Shown here in pieces: positions 49,061-57,681 of a stretch of 64,000 bases of DNA (position 1 is the first letter of the stretch; each line of letters begins with the position of its first letter). The stretch covers positions 1,736,001-1,800,000 of the forward strand of contig NZ_AP027362.1 in NCBI RefSeq assembly GCF_030295935.1. The letters are read 5' to 3'. Position numbers and translations under genes: made by a program. The notes below the pieces were generated by a model that was not told the origin of the DNA, made no database searches, and saw only the letters and a list, made by a program, of their open reading frames with translations. This stretch comes from Thalassotalea piscium (GTDB taxonomy: Bacteria; Pseudomonadota; Gammaproteobacteria; Enterobacterales; Alteromonadaceae).

Positions 49061-49366
49061 TTGAAAAAATTACTACAAGTTGATTTTGATTTTTCAGGCC
49101 CTTTTGGTGAAGAAATGTCGAATGCTTTGTTAGGTTTAGCTGAATCTATTAATAATGAAGCAGGTGTTATTTGGAAGATTTGGACAGAAAGCGAAAAAGA
49201 TCAAATAGCCGGTGGTGTTTACTTATTTGAAGATGAAGAAAGCGCAAAAGCCTATTTAGCAATGCATTCTGCTCGCCTAACTGAGATGGGAGTAAAAGGG
49301 GTTAGAGGTAAAATATTTGATATTAATATGCCTTTATCGACGATCAACAAAAGCCCTGTCAGTTAA
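49061..49366 (+). CDS. YdhR-family monooxygenase-like protein
   Basis: 101 residues of the dimeric ABM-like fold. It contains LLQVDFDFSGPFGEEM at the start, GVIWKIWTESEKDQIAGGVYLFEDEESAKAYL in the middle and GVRGKIFDINMPLS at the end, closely following E. coli YdhR (101 residues). YdhR is a putative mono-oxygenase of unknown substrate. The start is TTG at 49061 with TTGGAG eight bases upstream; no ATG is available. It follows metY after 78 bases. Confidence 0.87.
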   Translation: MKKLLQVDFDFSGPFGEEMSNALLGLAESINNEAGVIWKIWTESEKDQIAGGVYLFEDEESAKAYLAMHSARLTEMGVKGVRGKIFDINMPLSTINKSPVS

Positions 49367-49449
49367 TCATGATATGACATCATTTTTATAATTACAGGAA
49401 ATTACTCGCTCAACTAGGTTGGGTATTGTTTTACTATTGGGTCAACACA

Positions 49450-50307
49450 ATGAAAATGTCCTTTATTCTTTTTATCAGTGCCTTAGTTGTATTTAATGTG
49501 AATGCTCAGACTAACAATCCAACCCTCGCCACGCAAAAAAATCAAAAGATTCAAGTACTCAATTTTGGTACATTTCACTTTGGCACAACACCTGATGCAA
49601 ACAGTACTGAATTTGATGAAGAAGATGAGAAATCTCAAAAAGAAGTAAGAGCGCTCTCAAAAATGCTTGCTACTTTTAAGCCCACTATTATTTGTGTTGA
49701 AGCTCTCCCTGAGGAAAATGAACAACTTAATTTGTTGTACCAACAATTTGTAAAAAATCCTGAAAAGTTAATCACTTCTGGTGGTGAAACGAGTATGGTG
49801 GCATTTGATGTAGCTCGACTGAATAATATTGAAAAAATTTATGGTATAGACAATAAAATGAATTACAACTACAGCGTGGGTGATTTTTTTGAAAGCAGCC
49901 CAGACTATACAAACGCCATAGATTCAGAAACATACCTAGAAATAACCAATACCCCGTTTAAAGATTATCCAGAAATTGCAGCGCTAGATGAACAGTACGA
50001 AACCTTGTCATTAATTGATAAATTAAGGCTAATTAATCATCCTGTAAAACTTGATGCGTCGATCAATGCTAATGCAGATAAATTATTATATGTAGGATCA
50101 GAAAATAATTTTGAAGGTGCTGATAATGCAGCTGTTTTTTATCATAGAAATATGAAAATTTATTCTAACCTCAATCGTATCAAAATGGATGAAAATGACC
50201 GTGTTTTTATTCTAATGGGATCTGCTCATACTGCGTTTTTGAGAGAGTTTATTCAAAGAAGTCCTAAATTTGAAATGGTAGATACCTTAGACTATTTAAA
50301 AAAATAA
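49450..50307 (+). CDS. Exported DUF5694-family protein
   Basis: About 285 residues with a signal peptide (MKMSFILFISALVVFNVNAQ). The mature part matches the DUF5694 family, which is related to TraB/GumN proteins: VLNFGTFHFG near 36, KPTIICVEALPEENEQL near 77, and a late FILMGSAHTAFLREF with the conserved Gly and His. The metal-type His and Glu suggest an exported hydrolase or heme-binding protein, but no function is established. Start: ATG at 49450; the frame extends 24 bases upstream without support. Confidence 0.8.
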   Translation: MKMSFILFISALVVFNVNAQTNNPTLATQKNQKIQVLNFGTFHFGTTPDANSTEFDEEDEKSQKEVRALSKMLATFKPTIICVEALPEENEQLNLLYQQFVKNPEKLITSGGETSMVAFDVARLNNIEKIYGIDNKMNYNYSVGDFFESSPDYTNAIDSETYLEITNTPFKDYPEIAALDEQYETLSLIDKLRLINHPVKLDASINANADKLLYVGSENNFEGADNAAVFYHRNMKIYSNLNRIKMDENDRVFILMGSAHTAFLREFIQRSPKFEMVDTLDYLKK

Positions 50308-50561
50308 TAAACATTGTTTATGTGCAGTAAATAAAGTTTTTATTGCTTTAGTTATTCGTTGATTTAATTGAAGAAAATGTAGTTGTAAAATATTACTAAA
50401 TAATAATTGCATATTCTAAAAAAGGTGCTAAATTTAGCGCGTTATGCTGCTTCGTCGATTAACACGAACTTAAAATCCGTCCTACATCTACTGAAAATAC
50501 ATCTTTAAAAATTAGCATAACTTGGCAAAACATATGGCTTAATTTTTGAGGGTTACCAACT

Positions 50562-52007
50562 GTGTATAAAACGCTTATTGTTGTCGATAATGAACAAATT
50601 GATCTTGGTGAAGGTCGATCAGACGTTATTAGTTTTGAAAAATATTTACGTGAATATCCTAAATTAAATGAGCCTAAAACGCGCATTATCAATTTATGTG
50701 ATACAGAACAATATTTAAGTAAAGGCTATTATTGTTCGTTACTTGCAGAAGCACGTAATCATTTTGTATTACCAAGTTTAAAAACTATTAATGGCTTACG
50801 CAATATTACTCACGATAGTGATAGTACCGCAGTGTTCTCTCACTTATTGAGTGACTTGGGTACGGTTATTAACAAACAAGTATGGTTTGGAAAAACCGAT
50901 AATAGAGAATTCGACAAATTATCAGCAAAACTTTTCGCTTTATATCCAGCTCCATTACTTAATTTGAATGTTCAATCGCTAGACGGAAAGCCTAATATAA
51001 CGATTACTCGCACTTCATTTTCCGAGCTTGATAAACAGCAACAAGAAAGCTTTTTACAACACCTTGATGATTTTAAACAAACCGTGTGGCGTATTAACAA
51101 CAAACGTAAAAACTTTCGCTGGGATATGGCCATTTTGGTTGATCATGAAGATAAAGTGCCACCAAGTAACAAAGAGGCAATATCGCGCTTTGTAAAAGCT
51201 GCGAGCAAGTATGGTATTAACGCAGAGGTTGTAAGTATTGAACAACTTGATGACATAGCACATTACGATGCCTTGTTTATTCGTGAAACTACCGCAATTG
51301 ATCACCACACTTATCGTCTAGCACGTAAAGCGGAAGACTTAGGTTTGGTCGTTATCGACGATTCAGCTTCTATTTTACGTTGTTGTAATAAAGTGTACTT
51401 GCATGACGCGTTTAATTATAAAAAAGTACGTAGCCCCAAAACTCAAGTGGTTAGTGATCAAAGTGCTGAAACCATAGCTTTCTTAGAAGGTATGTTTAAT
51501 TACCCTGTAGTATTAAAAATGCCTGAGGGATCATTTTCTAATGGTGTATTCAAAGCTAAAGATCGTGCTGAGTTAACAACTAAGCTCGAAGATATGTTTA
51601 AAGTAAGTGCATTGGTTTTAGTACAAGAATATTTATATACAGAATTCGATTGGCGCATAGGTGTATTAAATGGGCGTGCTATTTATGCTTGTAAATACTT
51701 AATGGCCAGAGATCATTGGCAAATTTATAATCATAAAGCTAAACGATTCTTCTCTGGCGGTTTTGAAACACTTCCAACATTTGAGGTGCCAAAATATGTA
51801 CTTGATGCAGCGCTTCGCGCAACTAGTGTTGTTGGTTCAGGGCTTTATGGCGTTGATATTAAGGATGTTGATAATAAAGCGTATGTACTAGAGGTGAATG
51901 ACAATCCAAGTATTGATTATAAAGTTGAAGATGCTTACTTAAAAGATGAGTTATATATGCAAATTATGGCTGAGTTTCATCGTCGCTTGGAAGAGCGTGG
52001 ACGCTAA
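50562..52007 (+). CDS. RimK-like ATP-grasp ligase with extra N-terminal domain
   Basis: 481 residues. An N-terminal domain of about 190 residues found in RimK relatives (LIVVDNEQIDLGEGRSDVISFEKYL at the start) precedes a RimK/GshB-type ATP-grasp fold. The latter has FNYPVVLKMPEGSFSNGVFKAKDR near 312, the hinge ALVLVQEYLYTEFDWRIGVLNGR near 352, and metal ligands ending in VLEVNDNPSIDYKVED near 450. Such enzymes form amide bonds to carboxylates, often adding amino acids. Start: GTG at 50562. It is separated by three bases from the GNAT-peptidase gene, so the two act as one unit; this pair recurs in other gammaproteobacteria and its product is not known to me. Confidence 0.88.
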   Translation: MYKTLIVVDNEQIDLGEGRSDVISFEKYLREYPKLNEPKTRIINLCDTEQYLSKGYYCSLLAEARNHFVLPSLKTINGLRNITHDSDSTAVFSHLLSDLGTVINKQVWFGKTDNREFDKLSAKLFALYPAPLLNLNVQSLDGKPNITITRTSFSELDKQQQESFLQHLDDFKQTVWRINNKRKNFRWDMAILVDHEDKVPPSNKEAISRFVKAASKYGINAEVVSIEQLDDIAHYDALFIRETTAIDHHTYRLARKAEDLGLVVIDDSASILRCCNKVYLHDAFNYKKVRSPKTQVVSDQSAETIAFLEGMFNYPVVLKMPEGSFSNGVFKAKDRAELTTKLEDMFKVSALVLVQEYLYTEFDWRIGVLNGRAIYACKYLMARDHWQIYNHKAKRFFSGGFETLPTFEVPKYVLDAALRATSVVGSGLYGVDIKDVDNKAYVLEVNDNPSIDYKVEDAYLKDELYMQIMAEFHRRLEERGR

Positions 52008-52010
52008 TTA

Positions 52011-53156
52011 ATGGTAAGTACAACACTGGAATTTAACTACCGCTTTGCATCACTGGCCGATCTTGATGCTCTTGTTGTATTAGAGAATAACTGCTTTGTA
52101 TACGACAAACTAAGTAAGCGTAGCTTTCGTCATTGGATAAAAGCCAATACAGGTGTTTTATTAGTGGCAGAAACTGTTGCTGAATTAAATAAAGAAGTTG
52201 TTGGCTATGGCTTAGTTTGGTGCCATAAAGGTACACGTTTAGCACGTTTATATTCACTTGCAATAAGCCCAAAATGGCGTGGTCAAAATATTGCTAAACA
52301 GCTACTGACAAAACTTGAAACTGAAACATTACAACGTAAGCGATATTTTTTACGACTAGAGGTTTCTAAAACCAACGTTAGCGCCATTAGTTTATATGAA
52401 AGTTTAGGTTATCGGATTTTTGGAGAGTTTAGTGATTATTATGAAGATCACAGTGATGCTTACCGTATGCAAAAACAATTATTGCGTAAACAGGCATCTG
52501 ATTTTCAAAATTCTACACAGTGGTATCAACAAACGACAGAATTTACATGTGGCCCTGCATCTTTGATGATGGCAATGAATAGCTTAGATAATCTGTTAGT
52601 AATGGAACAACGTTTAGAGCTCGATCTTTGGCGTGAATCAACAACTATTTTTATGACATCGGGTCATGGAGGTTGCCATCCTGTAGGTTTAGCTAATGCT
52701 GCAAAGTTGCGAGGCTTTGAAGCTAAAGTGTTTCTTAACCAGCAAACGCCTCTATTTATTGATGGTGTTAGATCTCTGCATAAAAAAAACATTATGGAGC
52801 GTGTTCATCAGCAATTTATGGAAAATGCAGATATACAAAAAGTAGGGGTAGAGTTTTGTGATATTGACCAACTTCATTTAACAAGGCTACTTAGCGAAGG
52901 TTATGCCATAATCATGCTAATTAGTACTTATCGTTTAGACGGCAAAAAGGCACCACATTGGGTGACAATTACTGGTTTTGATGAGCTTTGTTTCTATGTC
53001 AATGATCCTGATTTAGATGAAAAATATCAACTGCCAATTGACTGCCAATACTTACCTATATCTCGTGAGAACTTCGATAAAATGTCGATGTTTGGTTCAG
53101 GTAAGCTTCGGACAGCCGTTGCGTTAAAGTTAAGTGAAAGTACTAGGGCGTGTTGA
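52011..53156 (+). CDS. GNAT acetyltransferase fused to a C39-like cysteine peptidase
   Basis: 381 residues, two domains. GNAT (about 7-155) has an acetyl-CoA loop in LAISPKWRGQNIAKQLLTKL and VSKTNVSAISLYESLGYRIFGE. The C39-like papain-fold domain (about 165-375) has Cys180 in TTEFTCGPASLMMAM, His316 in PHWVTITGFDE and Asp332 in VNDPDLDE, a complete triad. It likely acylates and trims, or cross-processes, a peptide made or extended by the neighbouring ligase. The last four residues (RAC and part of Thr) and the stop codon come from repeat element C copy 2, which starts at 53144, so the original C-terminus has been altered. Confidence 0.88.
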   Translation: MVSTTLEFNYRFASLADLDALVVLENNCFVYDKLSKRSFRHWIKANTGVLLVAETVAELNKEVVGYGLVWCHKGTRLARLYSLAISPKWRGQNIAKQLLTKLETETLQRKRYFLRLEVSKTNVSAISLYESLGYRIFGEFSDYYEDHSDAYRMQKQLLRKQASDFQNSTQWYQQTTEFTCGPASLMMAMNSLDNLLVMEQRLELDLWRESTTIFMTSGHGGCHPVGLANAAKLRGFEAKVFLNQQTPLFIDGVRSLHKKNIMERVHQQFMENADIQKVGVEFCDIDQLHLTRLLSEGYAIIMLISTYRLDGKKAPHWVTITGFDELCFYVNDPDLDEKYQLPIDCQYLPISRENFDKMSMFGSGKLRTAVALKLSESTRAC

Positions 53157-53410
53157 TCTTTCGAGTACAAATTTTGTACGAATTAAACATGATTTAATTG
53201 AGGCGTAGCGAATAAAGTGTAGTATTCTACATAAATGAGCTAGAACGAAAAATAAATCATGTTTAAACGTATCCGTAAGACAGCGCCTCTTTGGTTTTTC
53301 TACGGTGTTTTCACTTAGTTATGGGGAACAACCCCATTACATAAGTTCAGCCTTATATAAACACCAAATAAATCGCTGCAAAAATGTACAGAAAAGTCCA
53401 ACATGCCCTA
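53144..53410. repeat. Small inverted-repeat element, family C, copy 2
   Basis: 267 bases from TAGGGCGTGTTGATC to a slightly decayed complement (TGCCCTA end). It aligns with copy 1 except for about 49 missing bases. Its left end lies inside the coding frame of the GNAT-peptidase gene and provides the stop TGA at 53154-53156. Between it and the IS66 element (53411-53552) nothing is recognised. Confidence 0.9.
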
Positions 53411-53633
53411 ATTCGGTTAATTAAATACCTGCGAAGCAATTTAATTAGCCGTCAAAAGTAATCAATCGCTAGAAATAGTCTATTTATCTCTTAAACATGA
53501 TCTTTAGAATGAGCTAGTGTAGTCTTTAAGTACCTACAGAGTGTGATTATATGTAAGCGTCGGTTAAACCACACCTTTTCAATAATCGCCAAACTAAATA
53601 AACTCCTCAATAATTTACTATTGAGGATATATC

Positions 53634-53936
53634 ATGACCCGAAGAACGTTAGATGATTGGACGAAACTTATTGAACAACAAGCCCAAAGTGGCTTATCTA
53701 TTCTTGCTTTTTGTAGGCAACACCTGATACCTACGTCAAATTTTTATAAATACCGACATAAAATTGAACACCTCAATCAAACATCGGGTTTTGTAAAAGC
53801 TAAGGTAGCAACAAAGGTAACAACTCAACCTGCCGATGCAACAATACACATAGTCTTTGGTGACACAAGGTTAACGCTACCTCATCATTGCGAGCCAACA
53901 TGGTTAGCTGAACTTATTAAAGCGTTACACGCATGA
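53634..53936 (+). CDS. tnpA: IS66 accessory protein TnpA
   Basis: 100 residues, the first gene of IS66 elements. The helix-turn-helix region WTKLIEQQAQSGLSILAFCRQHLIPTSNFYKYRHK matches the TnpA family (PF01527-like). It helps TnpC by DNA binding. Its stop overlaps the start of tnpB (ATGA). Confidence 0.93.
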   Translation: MTRRTLDDWTKLIEQQAQSGLSILAFCRQHLIPTSNFYKYRHKIEHLNQTSGFVKAKVATKVTTQPADATIHIVFGDTRLTLPHHCEPTWLAELIKALHA

Positions 53937-54283
53937 AGATGTTTGTTGATGTGCCAGATGTCTATTTACACCGCCAGTTTGTCGACTTTCGCAAATCCAT
54001 TAATGGTTTATCGGCTTTGCTCGATAGTGAGCTGCAATTACCCGTGCTCTCTGGGGCTTTGTTTGTGTTTTGTAATAAAGGTCGCGATAAATTAAAAATT
54101 TTGTATTGGGATCAGACGGGTTTTGCGCTGTGGTATAAACGCCTTGAGCGAGATAAATTTAAGTGGCCAACAAGGTTAACTGAATCGACCATGGAGCTCA
54201 CCGAGCAGCAATTACATTGGCTGTTATCTGGCTTTGATGTGGTGGGCCATCAAGCGATGAGCCTCGATAATTTGTCCTTATAA
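53933..54283 (+). CDS. tnpB: IS66 accessory protein TnpB
   Basis: 116 residues of the IS66 Orf2 family: VYLHRQFVDFRKSINGLSAL, then LFVFCNKGRDKLKILYWDQTGFALWYKRLE, the family signature. Required for IS66 transposition in known members, with an unclear role. Coupled to tnpA by a 4-base overlap. Confidence 0.95.
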   Translation: MKMFVDVPDVYLHRQFVDFRKSINGLSALLDSELQLPVLSGALFVFCNKGRDKLKILYWDQTGFALWYKRLERDKFKWPTRLTESTMELTEQQLHWLLSGFDVVGHQAMSLDNLSL

Positions 54284-54369
54284 CCTGCGATCATAAGCAG
54301 CAGTTATCGATCACGAAATAGTCTAGGTAATAACAACAACTTAACCATTTACTCTGGTAAAATAACTGC

Positions 54370-55851
54370 ATGAATACCAAGACTAAACTTCACCAACGTA
54401 TTGCTCAGTTAGAGCGGTTATTAGCAGAAAAAGACGCACGTTTACTGTTCCTTGAAGAGCAGTTTCGCCTAGCGCAGCAAAAACAATTCGGTAAAAGTGG
54501 TGAAGGCTTTGCAGGTCAAGGGGAATTGTTCAACGAGGCGGAAGAAATCGCTGTGCTTGCTGAAACTGAGCAACAAGACATCAGCTATCGCCGTAATAAA
54601 CCAAAGCGTAAACCCTTACCGAAAGACTTACCACGGGAAGTGGTGGTGCATGATATTAGCGACGCTGAGAAAGTGTGCGTTTGTTGTCATGCTCAATTAC
54701 ATAAAATCGGTGAAGACATCACTGAAAAACTAGACTTCATCCCGGCACAAGTCAAAGTTATTGAACATGTTCGCCCTAAATACGCGTGTCGTGAATGCGA
54801 AAAAACAGGCACTAGCAACCCGATTAAACAAGCGTTGATGCCAGTAAGTCCTATCCCTAAAGGCATTGCTACTGCAAGTTTACTGAGTCAACTCATTACC
54901 AGTAAATATCAATATGGTTTGCCTCTTTATCGCCAAGAATCATTATTCAAACAATACGGTATCGCGCTCAGTCGCCAAACAATGAGTGATTGGATGCTCA
55001 AATCAGCAGCGTTATTTCCCCCGCTCATCAAACGGCTTAAGGAAGAATTACGAAAACAAGCAGTGATACATGCCGATGAGACTACGGTCAATGTCATCAA
55101 GTCTGACAAAATAAAAAGTTACATGTGGTTGTATTGCACGGGCACGGATTCCCCCATGCCCACTAGTTCAATCCCAAATATTATCTTATACGATTATCAT
55201 GATAGCCGTGCAGGTCGCTGCGTGGTTGATTATCTCGACGGCTATTCGGGCTACCTTCAAGTTGATGGTTATCAAGCCTATCATCAAACCCAAGCAACCT
55301 TAGTGGGTTGTTGGGCACATGCGCGGCGTAAATTCATTGAAGCCAAACAAGCACAACCCAAAGGAAAAAGTGGTAAAGCTGATGTGGCGCTAAGTTATAT
55401 TCAAAAATTGTACGGTATTGAATCGCGTTTTAAAAATACAACTCCAGAAGAGACTTACGAGGCTCGCCAAACTCAAGCCAAACCGATACTAGATAAATTA
55501 CACGGTTGGTTTACTCAACAAAATGTGTTGCCCAAAAACAAATTAGGTGAAGCTATCACGTATCTGAGTAATCAGTGGCCAAAATTGGTGGGTTACCTCG
55601 AAGACGGTCGCTTGAGCATCGACAATAATCGTGCAGAGCGGGCAATAAAGTCCTTCGTTATCGGACGTAAAAATTGGTTGTTTAGCCAAACCGCTAACGG
55701 TGCCGATGCGAGTGCTGCACTGTATAGTATTATCGAAACCGCTAAAGCTAATGGCTTAGTTCCATTTGATTATGTCAAGCAATGTCTTGAAGAGTTATGT
55801 AAACCACACCCTGATATTGACGCAATATTGCCGTGGAACATCAAGCGTTAG
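54370..55851 (+). CDS. tnpC: IS66 transposase TnpC
   Basis: 493 residues. An N-terminal leucine-zipper-like helix (LHQRIAQLERLLAEKDARL) precedes a Cys-rich zinc motif (CVCCHAQLH, then YACRECEKTG near 120-142). The DDE catalytic core has first Asp in VIHADETTVNV near 236, second in GYLQVDGYQAYHQT near 298, and Glu in SIDNNRAERAIKSF near 421. The C-terminal IS66_C tail is present (LYSIIETAKANGLVPFDY). Apparently intact. Confidence 0.96.
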   Translation: MNTKTKLHQRIAQLERLLAEKDARLLFLEEQFRLAQQKQFGKSGEGFAGQGELFNEAEEIAVLAETEQQDISYRRNKPKRKPLPKDLPREVVVHDISDAEKVCVCCHAQLHKIGEDITEKLDFIPAQVKVIEHVRPKYACRECEKTGTSNPIKQALMPVSPIPKGIATASLLSQLITSKYQYGLPLYRQESLFKQYGIALSRQTMSDWMLKSAALFPPLIKRLKEELRKQAVIHADETTVNVIKSDKIKSYMWLYCTGTDSPMPTSSIPNIILYDYHDSRAGRCVVDYLDGYSGYLQVDGYQAYHQTQATLVGCWAHARRKFIEAKQAQPKGKSGKADVALSYIQKLYGIESRFKNTTPEETYEARQTQAKPILDKLHGWFTQQNVLPKNKLGEAITYLSNQWPKLVGYLEDGRLSIDNNRAERAIKSFVIGRKNWLFSQTANGADASAALYSIIETAKANGLVPFDYVKQCLEELCKPHPDIDAILPWNIKR

Positions 55852-56160
55852 TCAGTAGAAAATGATAATGCAGAAATAAAAACGAAAGGTAAAACAGAGG
55901 TAATCATCCGTGATCAACACTCCCTGTTTACTTCATCCCTCATAGCAATCCTCGCTACATCACCTCATCCGTAAAGCTTCCCTAAACAAGCATCCAGCTT
56001 GCTGTTGTTACCAACTTTTTAAGTCTAGAATAAGGATGAAATATTGCAAATAATGCTGAATAAAAAATTTAGGTGTGGTTTAACCGACGCTTACGATTAT
56101 ATAATTACACTCGCATTTAAAACACTATAAAGCTTACCCATTACCACTAAGGACATTGTG

Positions 56161-57681
56161 ATGAAGTTTAGTCATTATATAAAACTGTTTAGCCTTTTAT
56201 TGTTGCTATCAACTTCTGTACATGCAGAATTTGAACGCAAAATAGCTATTGATGAAAGTATTACCACAAGTCACAGTACTTCTGTGAAAGGTAAGAAATT
56301 CGATTACACTGCAACTACAGGTACTCAGCCTGTATGGGATGAAGAAGGTAATCCAACAGCAACCCTTTTTTATACCTATTACCAGCGTTCAAAAGTAAAA
56401 GACAGAGCTGCTCGCCCATTACTTATTTCATTTAATGGTGGACCAGGCTCAGCATCGGTTTGGATGCATATTGCCTATACTGGTCCTAAAGTACTTAACG
56501 TCGACAGCGAAGGTTATCCGTTACAGCCTTACGGTGTTAAACCCAATGATTACTCAATTTTAGATACAGCGGATATTGTTTTTGTTAACCCTGTAAATAC
56601 CGGATATTCTCGAGTGTTACCGAACAAAGAAGGTAAAATGCCTTCAAAGGCTGAACAAAAAAGTATGTTCTTTGGCGTAAATGCAGATATAAAATATTTG
56701 GCTGATTGGGTGAACACTTTTGTTACTCGTAATAATCGCTGGCAATCCCCCAAATATCTTATTGGTGAAAGCTATGGCACCACACGCGTTGCTGGTTTAG
56801 CACTTGAATTACAAGCTCGCCAATGGATGTACCTTAATGGCGTTATTTTAGTTTCGCCCACAGAAATAGGCATTAAACGTGAAGGCCCTGTGGAAGCTGC
56901 AAATCGCTTACCTTACTTTGCAGCAACAGCTTGGTATCATAAAGCGTTAGCTGAAGACCTACAAAACCGTGATCTGTTAGAAATACTACCAGAGATAGAA
57001 AAATTTACCGTAGAAAAATATTTACCCGCACTCGCAAAGGGTGGGTTTATTGAAGCCCAAGAAAAGCAAAACATTGCAAAGCAGGTATCACGCTATTCTG
57101 GTTTGTCAGTACAAGAAGTATTACGTAATAATTTAGATATTGAAGCGTCATATTTCTGGAAAGAAATTCTTCGTGATCGTGAACAAACTGTTGGCCGTTT
57201 AGATTCAAGATATTTAGGTATTGACGAGAAAGTAACCGGTAGCAGACCAGACTATAATGCTGAGTTAACGTCTTGGTTACACAGCTTTACCCCAGCAATT
57301 AATTACTATTTGCGTGAAGAGCTTAATTATAAAACTGATATAAAATACAATATGTTTGGTAATGTTCATCCGTGGGATAGATCGAATAATAGAACCGGAG
57401 AAAACTTACGCTTAGCCATGGCACAAAATCCCTATTTAAACGTAATGGTTCAATCGGGTTATTATGATGGCGCAACCAATTATTTTGATGCTAAATACAC
57501 ATTATGGCAGCTAGACCCCAGTGGTAAAATGAAAGATAGATTGTCATTTAAAGGTTACAAAAGTGGTCATATGATGTATTTACGTTATGAAGATCTTAAA
57601 GCGTCTAACCAAGATATTCGTGAGTTTATGCAAGCAACTTTACCTGATAAAGGTACACCCGCAAAATATCACTCAAAATAG
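56161..57681 (+). CDS. S10-family serine carboxypeptidase, exported
   Basis: 506 residues with a signal peptide (1-23, LFSLLLLLSTSVHA). The oxyanion region is SFNGGPGSASVWMHI near 92. The catalytic Ser204 is in YLIGESYGTTRVAGL and the catalytic His470 in YKSGHMMYLRYED; the Asp lies in the preceding YYDGATNYF segment. These fit alpha/beta-hydrolase carboxypeptidases that remove C-terminal residues at acidic pH. Bacterial members are periplasmic or secreted. Start: ATG at 56161 after CTAAGGAC; a GTG directly before it is an alternative. The gene survives just downstream of the IS66 right end. Confidence 0.92.
   Translation: MKFSHYIKLFSLLLLLSTSVHAEFERKIAIDESITTSHSTSVKGKKFDYTATTGTQPVWDEEGNPTATLFYTYYQRSKVKDRAARPLLISFNGGPGSASVWMHIAYTGPKVLNVDSEGYPLQPYGVKPNDYSILDTADIVFVNPVNTGYSRVLPNKEGKMPSKAEQKSMFFGVNADIKYLADWVNTFVTRNNRWQSPKYLIGESYGTTRVAGLALELQARQWMYLNGVILVSPTEIGIKREGPVEAANRLPYFAATAWYHKALAEDLQNRDLLEILPEIEKFTVEKYLPALAKGGFIEAQEKQNIAKQVSRYSGLSVQEVLRNNLDIEASYFWKEILRDREQTVGRLDSRYLGIDEKVTGSRPDYNAELTSWLHSFTPAINYYLREELNYKTDIKYNMFGNVHPWDRSNNRTGENLRLAMAQNPYLNVMVQSGYYDGATNYFDAKYTLWQLDPSGKMKDRLSFKGYKSGHMMYLRYEDLKASNQDIREFMQATLPDKGTPAKYHSK

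What the first reader, a model, noticed from the sequence alone, without database searches (positions are those of the whole stretch)
50562..53156. RimK-like ligase coupled to a GNAT-C39 peptidase fusion: candidate peptide-modifying system
An ATP-grasp amide ligase with an additional N-terminal domain lies three bases before a protein combining an acetyltransferase with a papain-like peptidase that has a full Cys180-His316-Asp332 triad. The chemistry (ligate, acylate, cleave) implies a dedicated peptide or protein-tail modification or a small peptide metabolite. Comparable pairs were noted in amidoligase surveys, but I know of no characterised product.
Basis: partly seen in the sequence, partly recalled or inferred. 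Interest (0 to 1): 0.66.

Follow-up and report, generated by a model that had tools for sequence, protein, structure and literature searches.

The report
Peptide-ligase and acetyltransferase-peptidase gene pair
Two adjacent bacterial genes encode a peptide-bond-forming enzyme and a fused acetyltransferase-peptidase; the pair is conserved across many proteobacteria, looks like a kit for making and recycling a small capped peptide, and has no product known to us.

Summary
Window 50562-52007 is an RLAN + RimK-type ATP-grasp ligase; three bases later 52011-53156 is a GNAT fused to a DUF3335 (C39-like) papain-fold domain. In 113 such proteins (window included) Cys180 is present in 113, His316 in 112, Asp332 in 103 (9 Glu; one protein truncated). 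In 274 genomes of the class, 43 of the 44 with strong DUF3335 also carry RLAN.

Beyond the finding: (1) the tighter link is ligase + GNAT; 28 of 165 ligase loci (30 after a recheck) have a lone GNAT instead of the fusion. (2) In one ligase clade the neighbours are a free-standing C39 homologue, a GCS2 ligase and an N-formylglutamate-amidohydrolase-like enzyme. DUF2817 (M14-like) and DUF155 recur nearby; MATCAP rarely. No conserved precursor ORF was seen near the pair.

Best reading (0.45): non-ribosomal synthesis and recycling of a small N-capped peptide, working like NAGGN or mammalian NAAG synthesis. Chief rival (0.28): protein-terminus modification. Seven searches of open-licence papers found no characterised product. 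Interest 0.45.

The parts
50562..52007 (+). RLAN + RimK-like ATP-grasp ligase, 481 aa, GTG start
   Evidence: K319, D363, R365, D432, E444, N446 in 162 of 162 ligases aligned, window included
50637..51056 (+). RLAN domain (residues 26-165), function unknown; N44, Y56, S59 invariant
   Evidence: Pfam PF14401, 5.5e-33; 162 of 162
51120..51995 (+). ATP-grasp ligase domain (residues 187-478), fold of LysX/ArgX/RimK
   Evidence: AlphaFold2 model, mean pLDDT 86; VIA-align Z 27.7, rmsd 2.3, 266 aligned to LysX 3vpd
52011..53156 (+). GNAT-DUF3335 (C39-like) fusion protein, 381 aa
   Evidence: model mean pLDDT 92.5
52029..52490 (+). GNAT domain (residues 7-160), fold of Ard1/RimI N-alpha-acetyltransferases
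   Evidence: VIA-align Z 22.8, rmsd 1.6, 147 aligned to Ard1 4pv6; Y144 in 113 of 113
52518..53126 (+). DUF3335 papain-like (C39-like) domain, residues 170-372
   Evidence: PF11814 1e-84
52548..52550 (+). Predicted catalytic Cys180
   Evidence: 113 of 113
52956..52958 (+). Predicted catalytic His316
   Evidence: 112 of 113, one truncated
53004..53006 (+). Predicted catalytic Asp332
   Evidence: 103 Asp, 9 Glu, 1 truncated of 113

Best explanation
The pair is the two-gene form of a conserved bacterial module that makes, and can recycle, a small non-ribosomal N-capped peptide. Proposed steps, all inferred from fold and conserved residues: the RLAN ATP-grasp ligase uses ATP to activate a carboxylate as an acyl phosphate and joins it to the amine of an amino acid (the LysX/ArgX/RimK reaction); the RimI/Ard1-like GNAT puts an acetyl cap on the free N-terminal alpha-amine; the C39-like cysteine enzyme cuts the peptide to turn it over. 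Where present, the M14-like DUF2817 enzyme would remove the cap or a terminal residue. In one clade GCS2 (gamma-glutamyl transfer to an amine) and an N-formylglutamate-amidohydrolase-like enzyme would take over the roles of GNAT and DUF2817. Shown: gene order, conservation, catalytic-type residues, folds of ligase and GNAT domains, co-occurrence, confinement of the GCS2 version to one clade. Not shown: any substrate, product, activity or the order of steps.
For: Co-occurrence 43 of 44 in the class sample with every relative orientation (104 placements: 41 GNAT-C39 before ligase, 37 divergent, 22 ligase first as here, 4 convergent), so the link is not just inherited order. Ligase fold LysX/ArgX/RimK; GNAT fold N-alpha-acetyltransferase. 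GNAT kept where C39 is missing: 28 of 165 loci (30); that label changes at least 11 times on well-supported branches of the ligase tree (direction inferred). GCS2-type neighbours are confined to one clade of 11 ligases (1 change, support 100), 8 of which have C39 homologue + GCS2 + FGase within 5 kb; that C39 is homologous to DUF3335 (hhalign E 2.5e-9, Cys/His/Asp aligned). GCS2 and FGase families mostly act on free amino acids and small peptides (recalled), which favours a small product. No conserved short ORF nearby. Precedents: NAGGN, where a GNAT-family enzyme both acetylates and forms the peptide bond and the operon carries a peptidase (PMC8070244 passages); mammalian NAA made by NAT8L, NAAG by RIMKLA/B, NAA hydrolysed by aspartoacylase (PMC5756261 passages).
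Against: The GNAT's closest solved relatives by profile and fold are mostly protein N-terminal acetyltransferases (with the window sequence alone the top hit was YpeA), RimK itself modifies a ribosomal protein, and DUF155 (RMND1 family) and MATCAP (tubulin tyrosine carboxypeptidase family) are neighbours; all this fits protein modification as well or better. DUF2817 co-occurs with RLAN no more than chance in the class sample (4 of 10, p 0.18), although all four are adjacent to the ligase, and the window's genome has none. Nine ligase loci have neither GNAT nor C39 in reach. That GCS2 replaced GNAT, rather than the reverse, depends on the tree's root, which is not known. No product is known.
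Confidence: 0.45

Rival explanations
1. Protein-terminus modification: the ligase adds amino acids to the C-terminus (or a side chain) of a specific protein as RimK does to S6; the GNAT acetylates its N-terminus or the added residues; the C39 enzyme (or DUF2817, MATCAP) erases the tail, as RimB does for RimK.
For: Fold kinship of the ligase to RimK and of the GNAT to RimI/NatA; co-occurrence with DUF155 (21 of 37 DUF155 genomes have RLAN, p 1.5e-6); MATCAP next to the module in L088, L121, L133; RimK/RimB precedent (PMC12239564 passages).
Against: GCS2 + FGase in place of GNAT in one clade. Outside synteny of single genera or families only DUF2817 and DUF155 recurred close to the ligase in the 80 named loci, and no candidate target gene was recognised, but most other neighbour families were not identified. 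The genome has its own RimI and a second RimK-like protein.
Confidence: 0.28
2. The papain-fold domain is an acyl- or peptidyl-transferase (BtrH- or phytochelatin-synthase-like) that builds rather than degrades the product, handing an aminoacyl or gamma-glutamyl group made by the ligase to an amine.
For: The GNAT-C39 protein has a sub-threshold Pfam match to phytochelatin synthase (E 0.017); weak PDB profile matches of the DUF3335 domain to BtrH-domain proteins (E 0.08); the Cys-His-Asp triad suits both chemistries.
Against: These matches are near chance level; the domain is missing in many loci that keep ligase + GNAT, unlike an essential biosynthetic step.
Confidence: 0.14
3. An amino-group-carrier system like LysW/LysX, in which the ligase loads amino acids on a small carrier protein and the peptidase releases them.
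For: LysX/ArgX are among the closest structural matches of the ligase (Z 27-28, tied with RimK).
Against: No conserved small ORF within 2.5 kb of the pair among 109 loci (the rest of the genomes was not searched).
Confidence: 0.06
4. A RiPP pathway that modifies a ribosomal precursor peptide.
For: C39-type peptidases and ATP-grasp ligases both occur in RiPP systems (recalled; no call supports it for this pair).
Against: No conserved precursor-like ORF: the 15 most widespread small-ORF clusters (8 loci at most) were shadows of DUF2817 or DUF155, Marinobacter synteny, or low-complexity high-GC ORFs. No peptide exporter was recognised next to the pair; an ABC-ATPase family occurs in 11 of 80 loci but at a median 6 kb.
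Confidence: 0.04

Closest known systems
NAGGN synthesis (AsnO / Ngg / peptidase operon)
   Same: Acetylation and peptide-bond formation with a peptidase in one operon; acetylated dipeptide product (PMC8070244 passages)
   Different: The window GNAT protein is far below the Ngg model cut-off (19.3 vs 569 bits) and the ligase's 25 best models did not include it; separate genes, RLAN domain, papain-type rather than aminopeptidase partner; no asparagine synthase among the flanking proteins scanned
Mammalian NAA/NAAG metabolism (NAT8L, RIMKLA/B, aspartoacylase)
   Same: GNAT, RimK-like ligase and hydrolases; DUF2817 carries HxxE, DLNRN and later His/Glu invariants like the aspartoacylase/M14 fold (kinship recalled)
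   Different: RimI/Ard1-type GNAT, RLAN domain, cysteine enzyme; substrates unknown; the window's genome lacks DUF2817
RimK-RimB S6 glutamylation
   Same: RimK-type ATP-grasp fold with a counteracting peptidase (PMC12239564 passages)
   Different: 84.2 vs 143.4 bits cut-off for the RimK subfamily model; extra RLAN domain; papain-like instead of retropepsin-like partner
LysX/ArgX with LysW
   Same: Among the closest solved folds of the ligase domain (Z 27-28)
   Different: No conserved small ORF that could be a carrier found nearby
DUF3335-GNAT fusions named in the papain-like survey PMC10318531
   Same: Same domain architecture; the passage says the GNAT domains might be peptide ligases or acetylases
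   Different: The passage seen mentions neither the RLAN partner nor a product

Membership tests
RLAN ATP-grasp ligases (PF14401) | RLAN domain over the curated cut-off, fused to a RimK-like ATP-grasp | tested here: met
   114.2 vs 25 bits; RimK 43.8 vs 21
DUF3335 C39-like family (PF11814) | Domain over cut-off, with Cys-His-Asp triad | tested here: met
   283.6 vs 25 bits; triad in the window and homologues
RimK S6 glutamate ligase | Score over RimK models | tested here: not met
   TIGR00768 84.2 vs 143.4; NF007764 38.1 vs 331
RimI S18 acetyltransferase | Score over TIGR01575 | tested here: not met
   67.7 vs 86.4; a separate protein at G000 2601567 scores 101.9
NAGGN synthetase (Ngg) | Score over TIGR03103 | tested here: not met
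   19.3 vs 569 bits, GNAT part only
NAGGN/NAAG-like metabolite system | Makes an N-acylated dipeptide | not testable with these tools
   needs metabolomics or enzymology
RiPP system | Conserved precursor ORF near the enzymes | tested here: inconclusive
   none recognised within 2.5 kb among 109 loci; distant loci not examined
LysW amino-group-carrier system | Small carrier protein as acceptor | tested here: inconclusive
   none recognised near the pair; rest of genome not searched
Papain-like peptidase activity | Cys-dependent hydrolysis of an amide | not testable with these tools
   residues present; activity unknown

The most novel reading that the evidence does not exclude
Proteobacteria run an unrecognised N-acyl-peptide cycle that mirrors the vertebrate NAA/NAAG cycle with modular parts: a capping enzyme (GNAT or GCS2), an RLAN RimK-like ligase, a cysteine hydrolase that removes the added residue, and an M14-like decapping enzyme (DUF2817 or an FGase homologue). 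The product would be an abundant small capped peptide, for instance a compatible solute or nitrogen/acetate store; the ligase is carried by about a quarter of sampled genomes of this class (63 of 274).
Probability: 0.18. Interest if true: 0.75.

Novelty: new variant of a known kind. Interest (0 to 1): 0.45.

Why it matters
RLAN was found in 63 of 274 sampled genomes of the class and 56 of 299 of the phylum, so a common enzyme pair with intact active-site residues still lacks a product known to us. The clade-specific GCS2 + FGase version and the repeated absence of the C39 domain turn a vague 'peptide modification' label into a specific, testable scheme of capping, ligation and recycling, and point to small capped peptides, or protein tails, that mass spectrometry could detect.

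Tried and rejected
Chance neighbourhood: rejected by co-occurrence and varied orientation. Decaying gene: dN/dS 0.02-0.11 in 13 of 20 computable comparisons. RimK or RimI orthologue: below model cut-offs; the genome has a separate RimI and another RimK-like protein. RiPP/carrier; that scan covered only loci with both ligase and GNAT-C39, 2.5 kb on each side, and I looked at the 15 most widespread clusters. DUF2817 as an obligate third component: rejected; near the ligase in 21 of 165 loci, co-occurrence not significant, absent from the window's genome. No Rfam family in 49300-56200. Promoter and terminator scans were at shuffle level. Fold searches filled up with ATP-grasp and GNAT hits, so the RLAN and C39 domains were barely tested by fold; both prediction jobs went to full-length proteins. 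The C39 profile had only weak PDB matches (best E 0.08). DUF2817 had one solved match under 0.01, Rep34 4oko at 0.0016. Literature: no paper describing a product was found in searches (open-licence papers only); two were for precedents. I saw passages of PMC12239564, PMC4431377, PMC10318531, PMC8070244 and PMC5756261, other papers as listings only; Iyer et al. 2009 was not held and is recalled.

Limits: my gene caller is a simple longest-ORF method. Of 172 loci, 7 had no ligase label: L095, L123 and L153 were missed by the caller, L172, L174, L176 and L178 were DUF3335-only stretches. Of the 19 labelled ligase loci without GNAT or C39, three were caller misses (L185 and L197 have a lone GNAT, L219 a GNAT-C39), seven end within 1 kb of the ligase, and nine have neither in reach (L069, L071, L074, L082, L083, L148, L155, L173, L198; L155 has GCS2). 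The genome of L173 has its GNAT-C39 on another contig. The MATCAP profile came from one sequence, so MATCAP counts are low bounds. The 80 named loci are the best hits of a capped list and the unnamed loci were chosen by RLAN/DUF3335 hits, so these counts describe architectures, not prevalence.

Full report
What is there. Window 50562-52007 and 52011-53156 encode, three bases apart and on the same strand, a 481-aa RLAN + RimK-like ATP-grasp ligase and a 381-aa protein that joins a GNAT acetyltransferase to a DUF3335 papain-like (C39-like) domain. In 113 GNAT-C39 proteins (window included) Gln174 and Cys180 are present in 113, His316 in 112, Asp332 in 103 with 9 Glu; one protein is cut by a contig end before His and Asp. 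ATP-grasp residues K319, D363, R365, D432, E444 and N446 are present in 162 of 162 ligases. dN/dS was 0.02-0.11 in the 13 of 20 comparisons that could be computed, several with dS near saturation.

Are they partners? Of 59 genomes (own and 58 relatives), 23 have a strong GNAT-C39 and 24 a strong RLAN ligase, 23 both; the exception, G006, has a ligase followed by a GNAT without C39 (G050's ligase was counted from a fragment at a contig end). In 274 genomes of the class, 63 have RLAN and 44 a strong DUF3335 (over 250 bits; four weaker matches dropped), 43 both, Fisher 1.6e-33; the exception is G211. Among 104 close placements GNAT-C39 comes first (41), divergent (37), after the ligase as here (22) or convergent (4). 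Partnership without fixed order points to a shared function.

What is the core? Of these 172, 165 gave a labelled ligase; within 5 kb, 107 have GNAT-C39, 28 a lone GNAT, 11 a free-standing C39 homologue, and 19 none of these. A recheck of the 19 found three caller misses (two lone GNATs, one GNAT-C39), seven contig ends within 1 kb, and nine loci with neither in reach. On a tree of 160 ligases the lone-GNAT label changes at least 11 times on well-supported branches. In G098, G234 and G328 (99-100% complete) the ligase has a lone GNAT and no DUF3335 match was found in the genome. In G010, G026 and G028 the ligase is followed by a lone GNAT and a GNAT-C39 lies on another contig. So ligase + GNAT looks like the core and the C39 domain like an add-on; the direction of change is inferred.

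An informative version. Eleven ligases form one group on the tree (1 change, support 100), placed among ligases with GNAT-C39 neighbours; the root is unknown. Eight of the eleven have a C39-like protein, GCS2 (glutamate-cysteine ligase family 2) and an N-formylglutamate-amidohydrolase-like protein within 5 kb; the other three show one or two of these. The C39-like protein is homologous to DUF3335 (hhalign E 2.5e-9, Cys/His/Asp aligned). So in this group an enzyme family that joins glutamate to an amine stands where the acetylating GNAT stands elsewhere, as one expects if the GNAT's job is to cap an amine.

Other neighbours. DUF2817 lies near the ligase in 21 of 165 loci, 20 of them with GNAT-C39, in more than one class and in varying order. 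It carries HxxE, DLNRN and later invariant His and Glu residues; its one solved match under E 0.01 is Rep34 (4oko, 0.0016), with weaker ones to a xylanase inhibitor, carboxypeptidase N and MpaA. Its co-occurrence with RLAN is not significant (4 of 10, p 0.18; 14 genomes with weak DUF2817 matches dropped), though all four are adjacent. DUF155 is near in 17 of 165 loci and co-occurs genome-wide (21 of 37, p 1.5e-6; one match under the cut-off dropped); the window's genome has one far away. MATCAP lies beside the module in three loci. A 2OG-Fe(II) oxygenase is within 5 kb in six loci.

Structure. The ligase domain (residues 187-478; model mean pLDDT 86, pTM 0.62) matches LysX, ArgX and RimK at Z 26-28. 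The GNAT domain (7-160; model mean pLDDT 92.5) matches archaeal Ard1, RimI and eukaryotic NatA/NatC catalytic subunits at Z 21-23. By sequence the family profile also finds N-terminal acetyltransferases first, while the window sequence alone finds YpeA first. RLAN and C39 folds were not searched alone.

Mechanism. The most likely reading (0.45) is non-ribosomal synthesis of a small peptide by the ligase, N-capping by the GNAT, and turnover by the C39 enzyme and, where present, the M14-like enzyme. The NAGGN operon (PMC8070244 passages) and mammalian NAA/NAAG metabolism (PMC5756261 passages) are working analogies, not memberships: the window proteins fail the Ngg, RimK and RimI model cut-offs. 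The main rival (0.28) is modification of a protein terminus: the closest solved GNATs act on protein N-termini, and DUF155 and MATCAP belong to families known from protein biology. Sequence alone does not settle it.

Is it new? Both domains are named families, and the GNAT-DUF3335 fusion is mentioned in print (PMC10318531 passage, citing the 2009 amidoligase survey, not held). Seven searches of open-licence papers found no characterised product. The window copy itself is an ordinary, intact member of this conserved pair; the interest lies in the module.

Noticed in passing
window 53141-53413: A dispersed repeat of about 270 bp (MITE-like; by eye the ends read TAGGGCGTGTTG... and ...CAACATGCCCTA): 49 matches in the host genome, itself and split copies included. 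Most full copies start at window 53141-53144, so the repeat seems to supply the last few codons and the stop codon (53154-53156) of the GNAT-C39 gene.
   Followed up: partly
window 53553-56094: IS66-family insertion sequence with perfect 24-bp terminal inverted repeats, tnpB and transposase genes and a 100-aa ORF without a Pfam match, downstream of the pair.
   Followed up: partly
window 56158-57681: Serine carboxypeptidase S10-family protein beyond the IS element; it had no counterpart in the stretches of relatives mapped around the pair.
   Followed up: no
L088 12039-13181, L121 5626-6963, L133 7262-8674: MATCAP (microtubule-associated tyrosine carboxypeptidase family) genes beside the module in three gammaproteobacteria; the bacterial function of this family is unknown to me.
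   Followed up: partly
L109, L111, L113, L114, L115, L122, L131: In seven Marinobacter loci a gene family is conserved next to the ligase on the opposite strand; the L113 copy is a cation-efflux (zinc transporter) family protein; probably genus synteny.
   Followed up: no
L069, L071, L074, L082, L083: RLAN ligases with about 10 kb on both sides but neither GNAT nor C39 in reach; three of them (L071, L082, L083) have a 2OG-Fe(II) oxygenase within 5 kb.
   Followed up: partly
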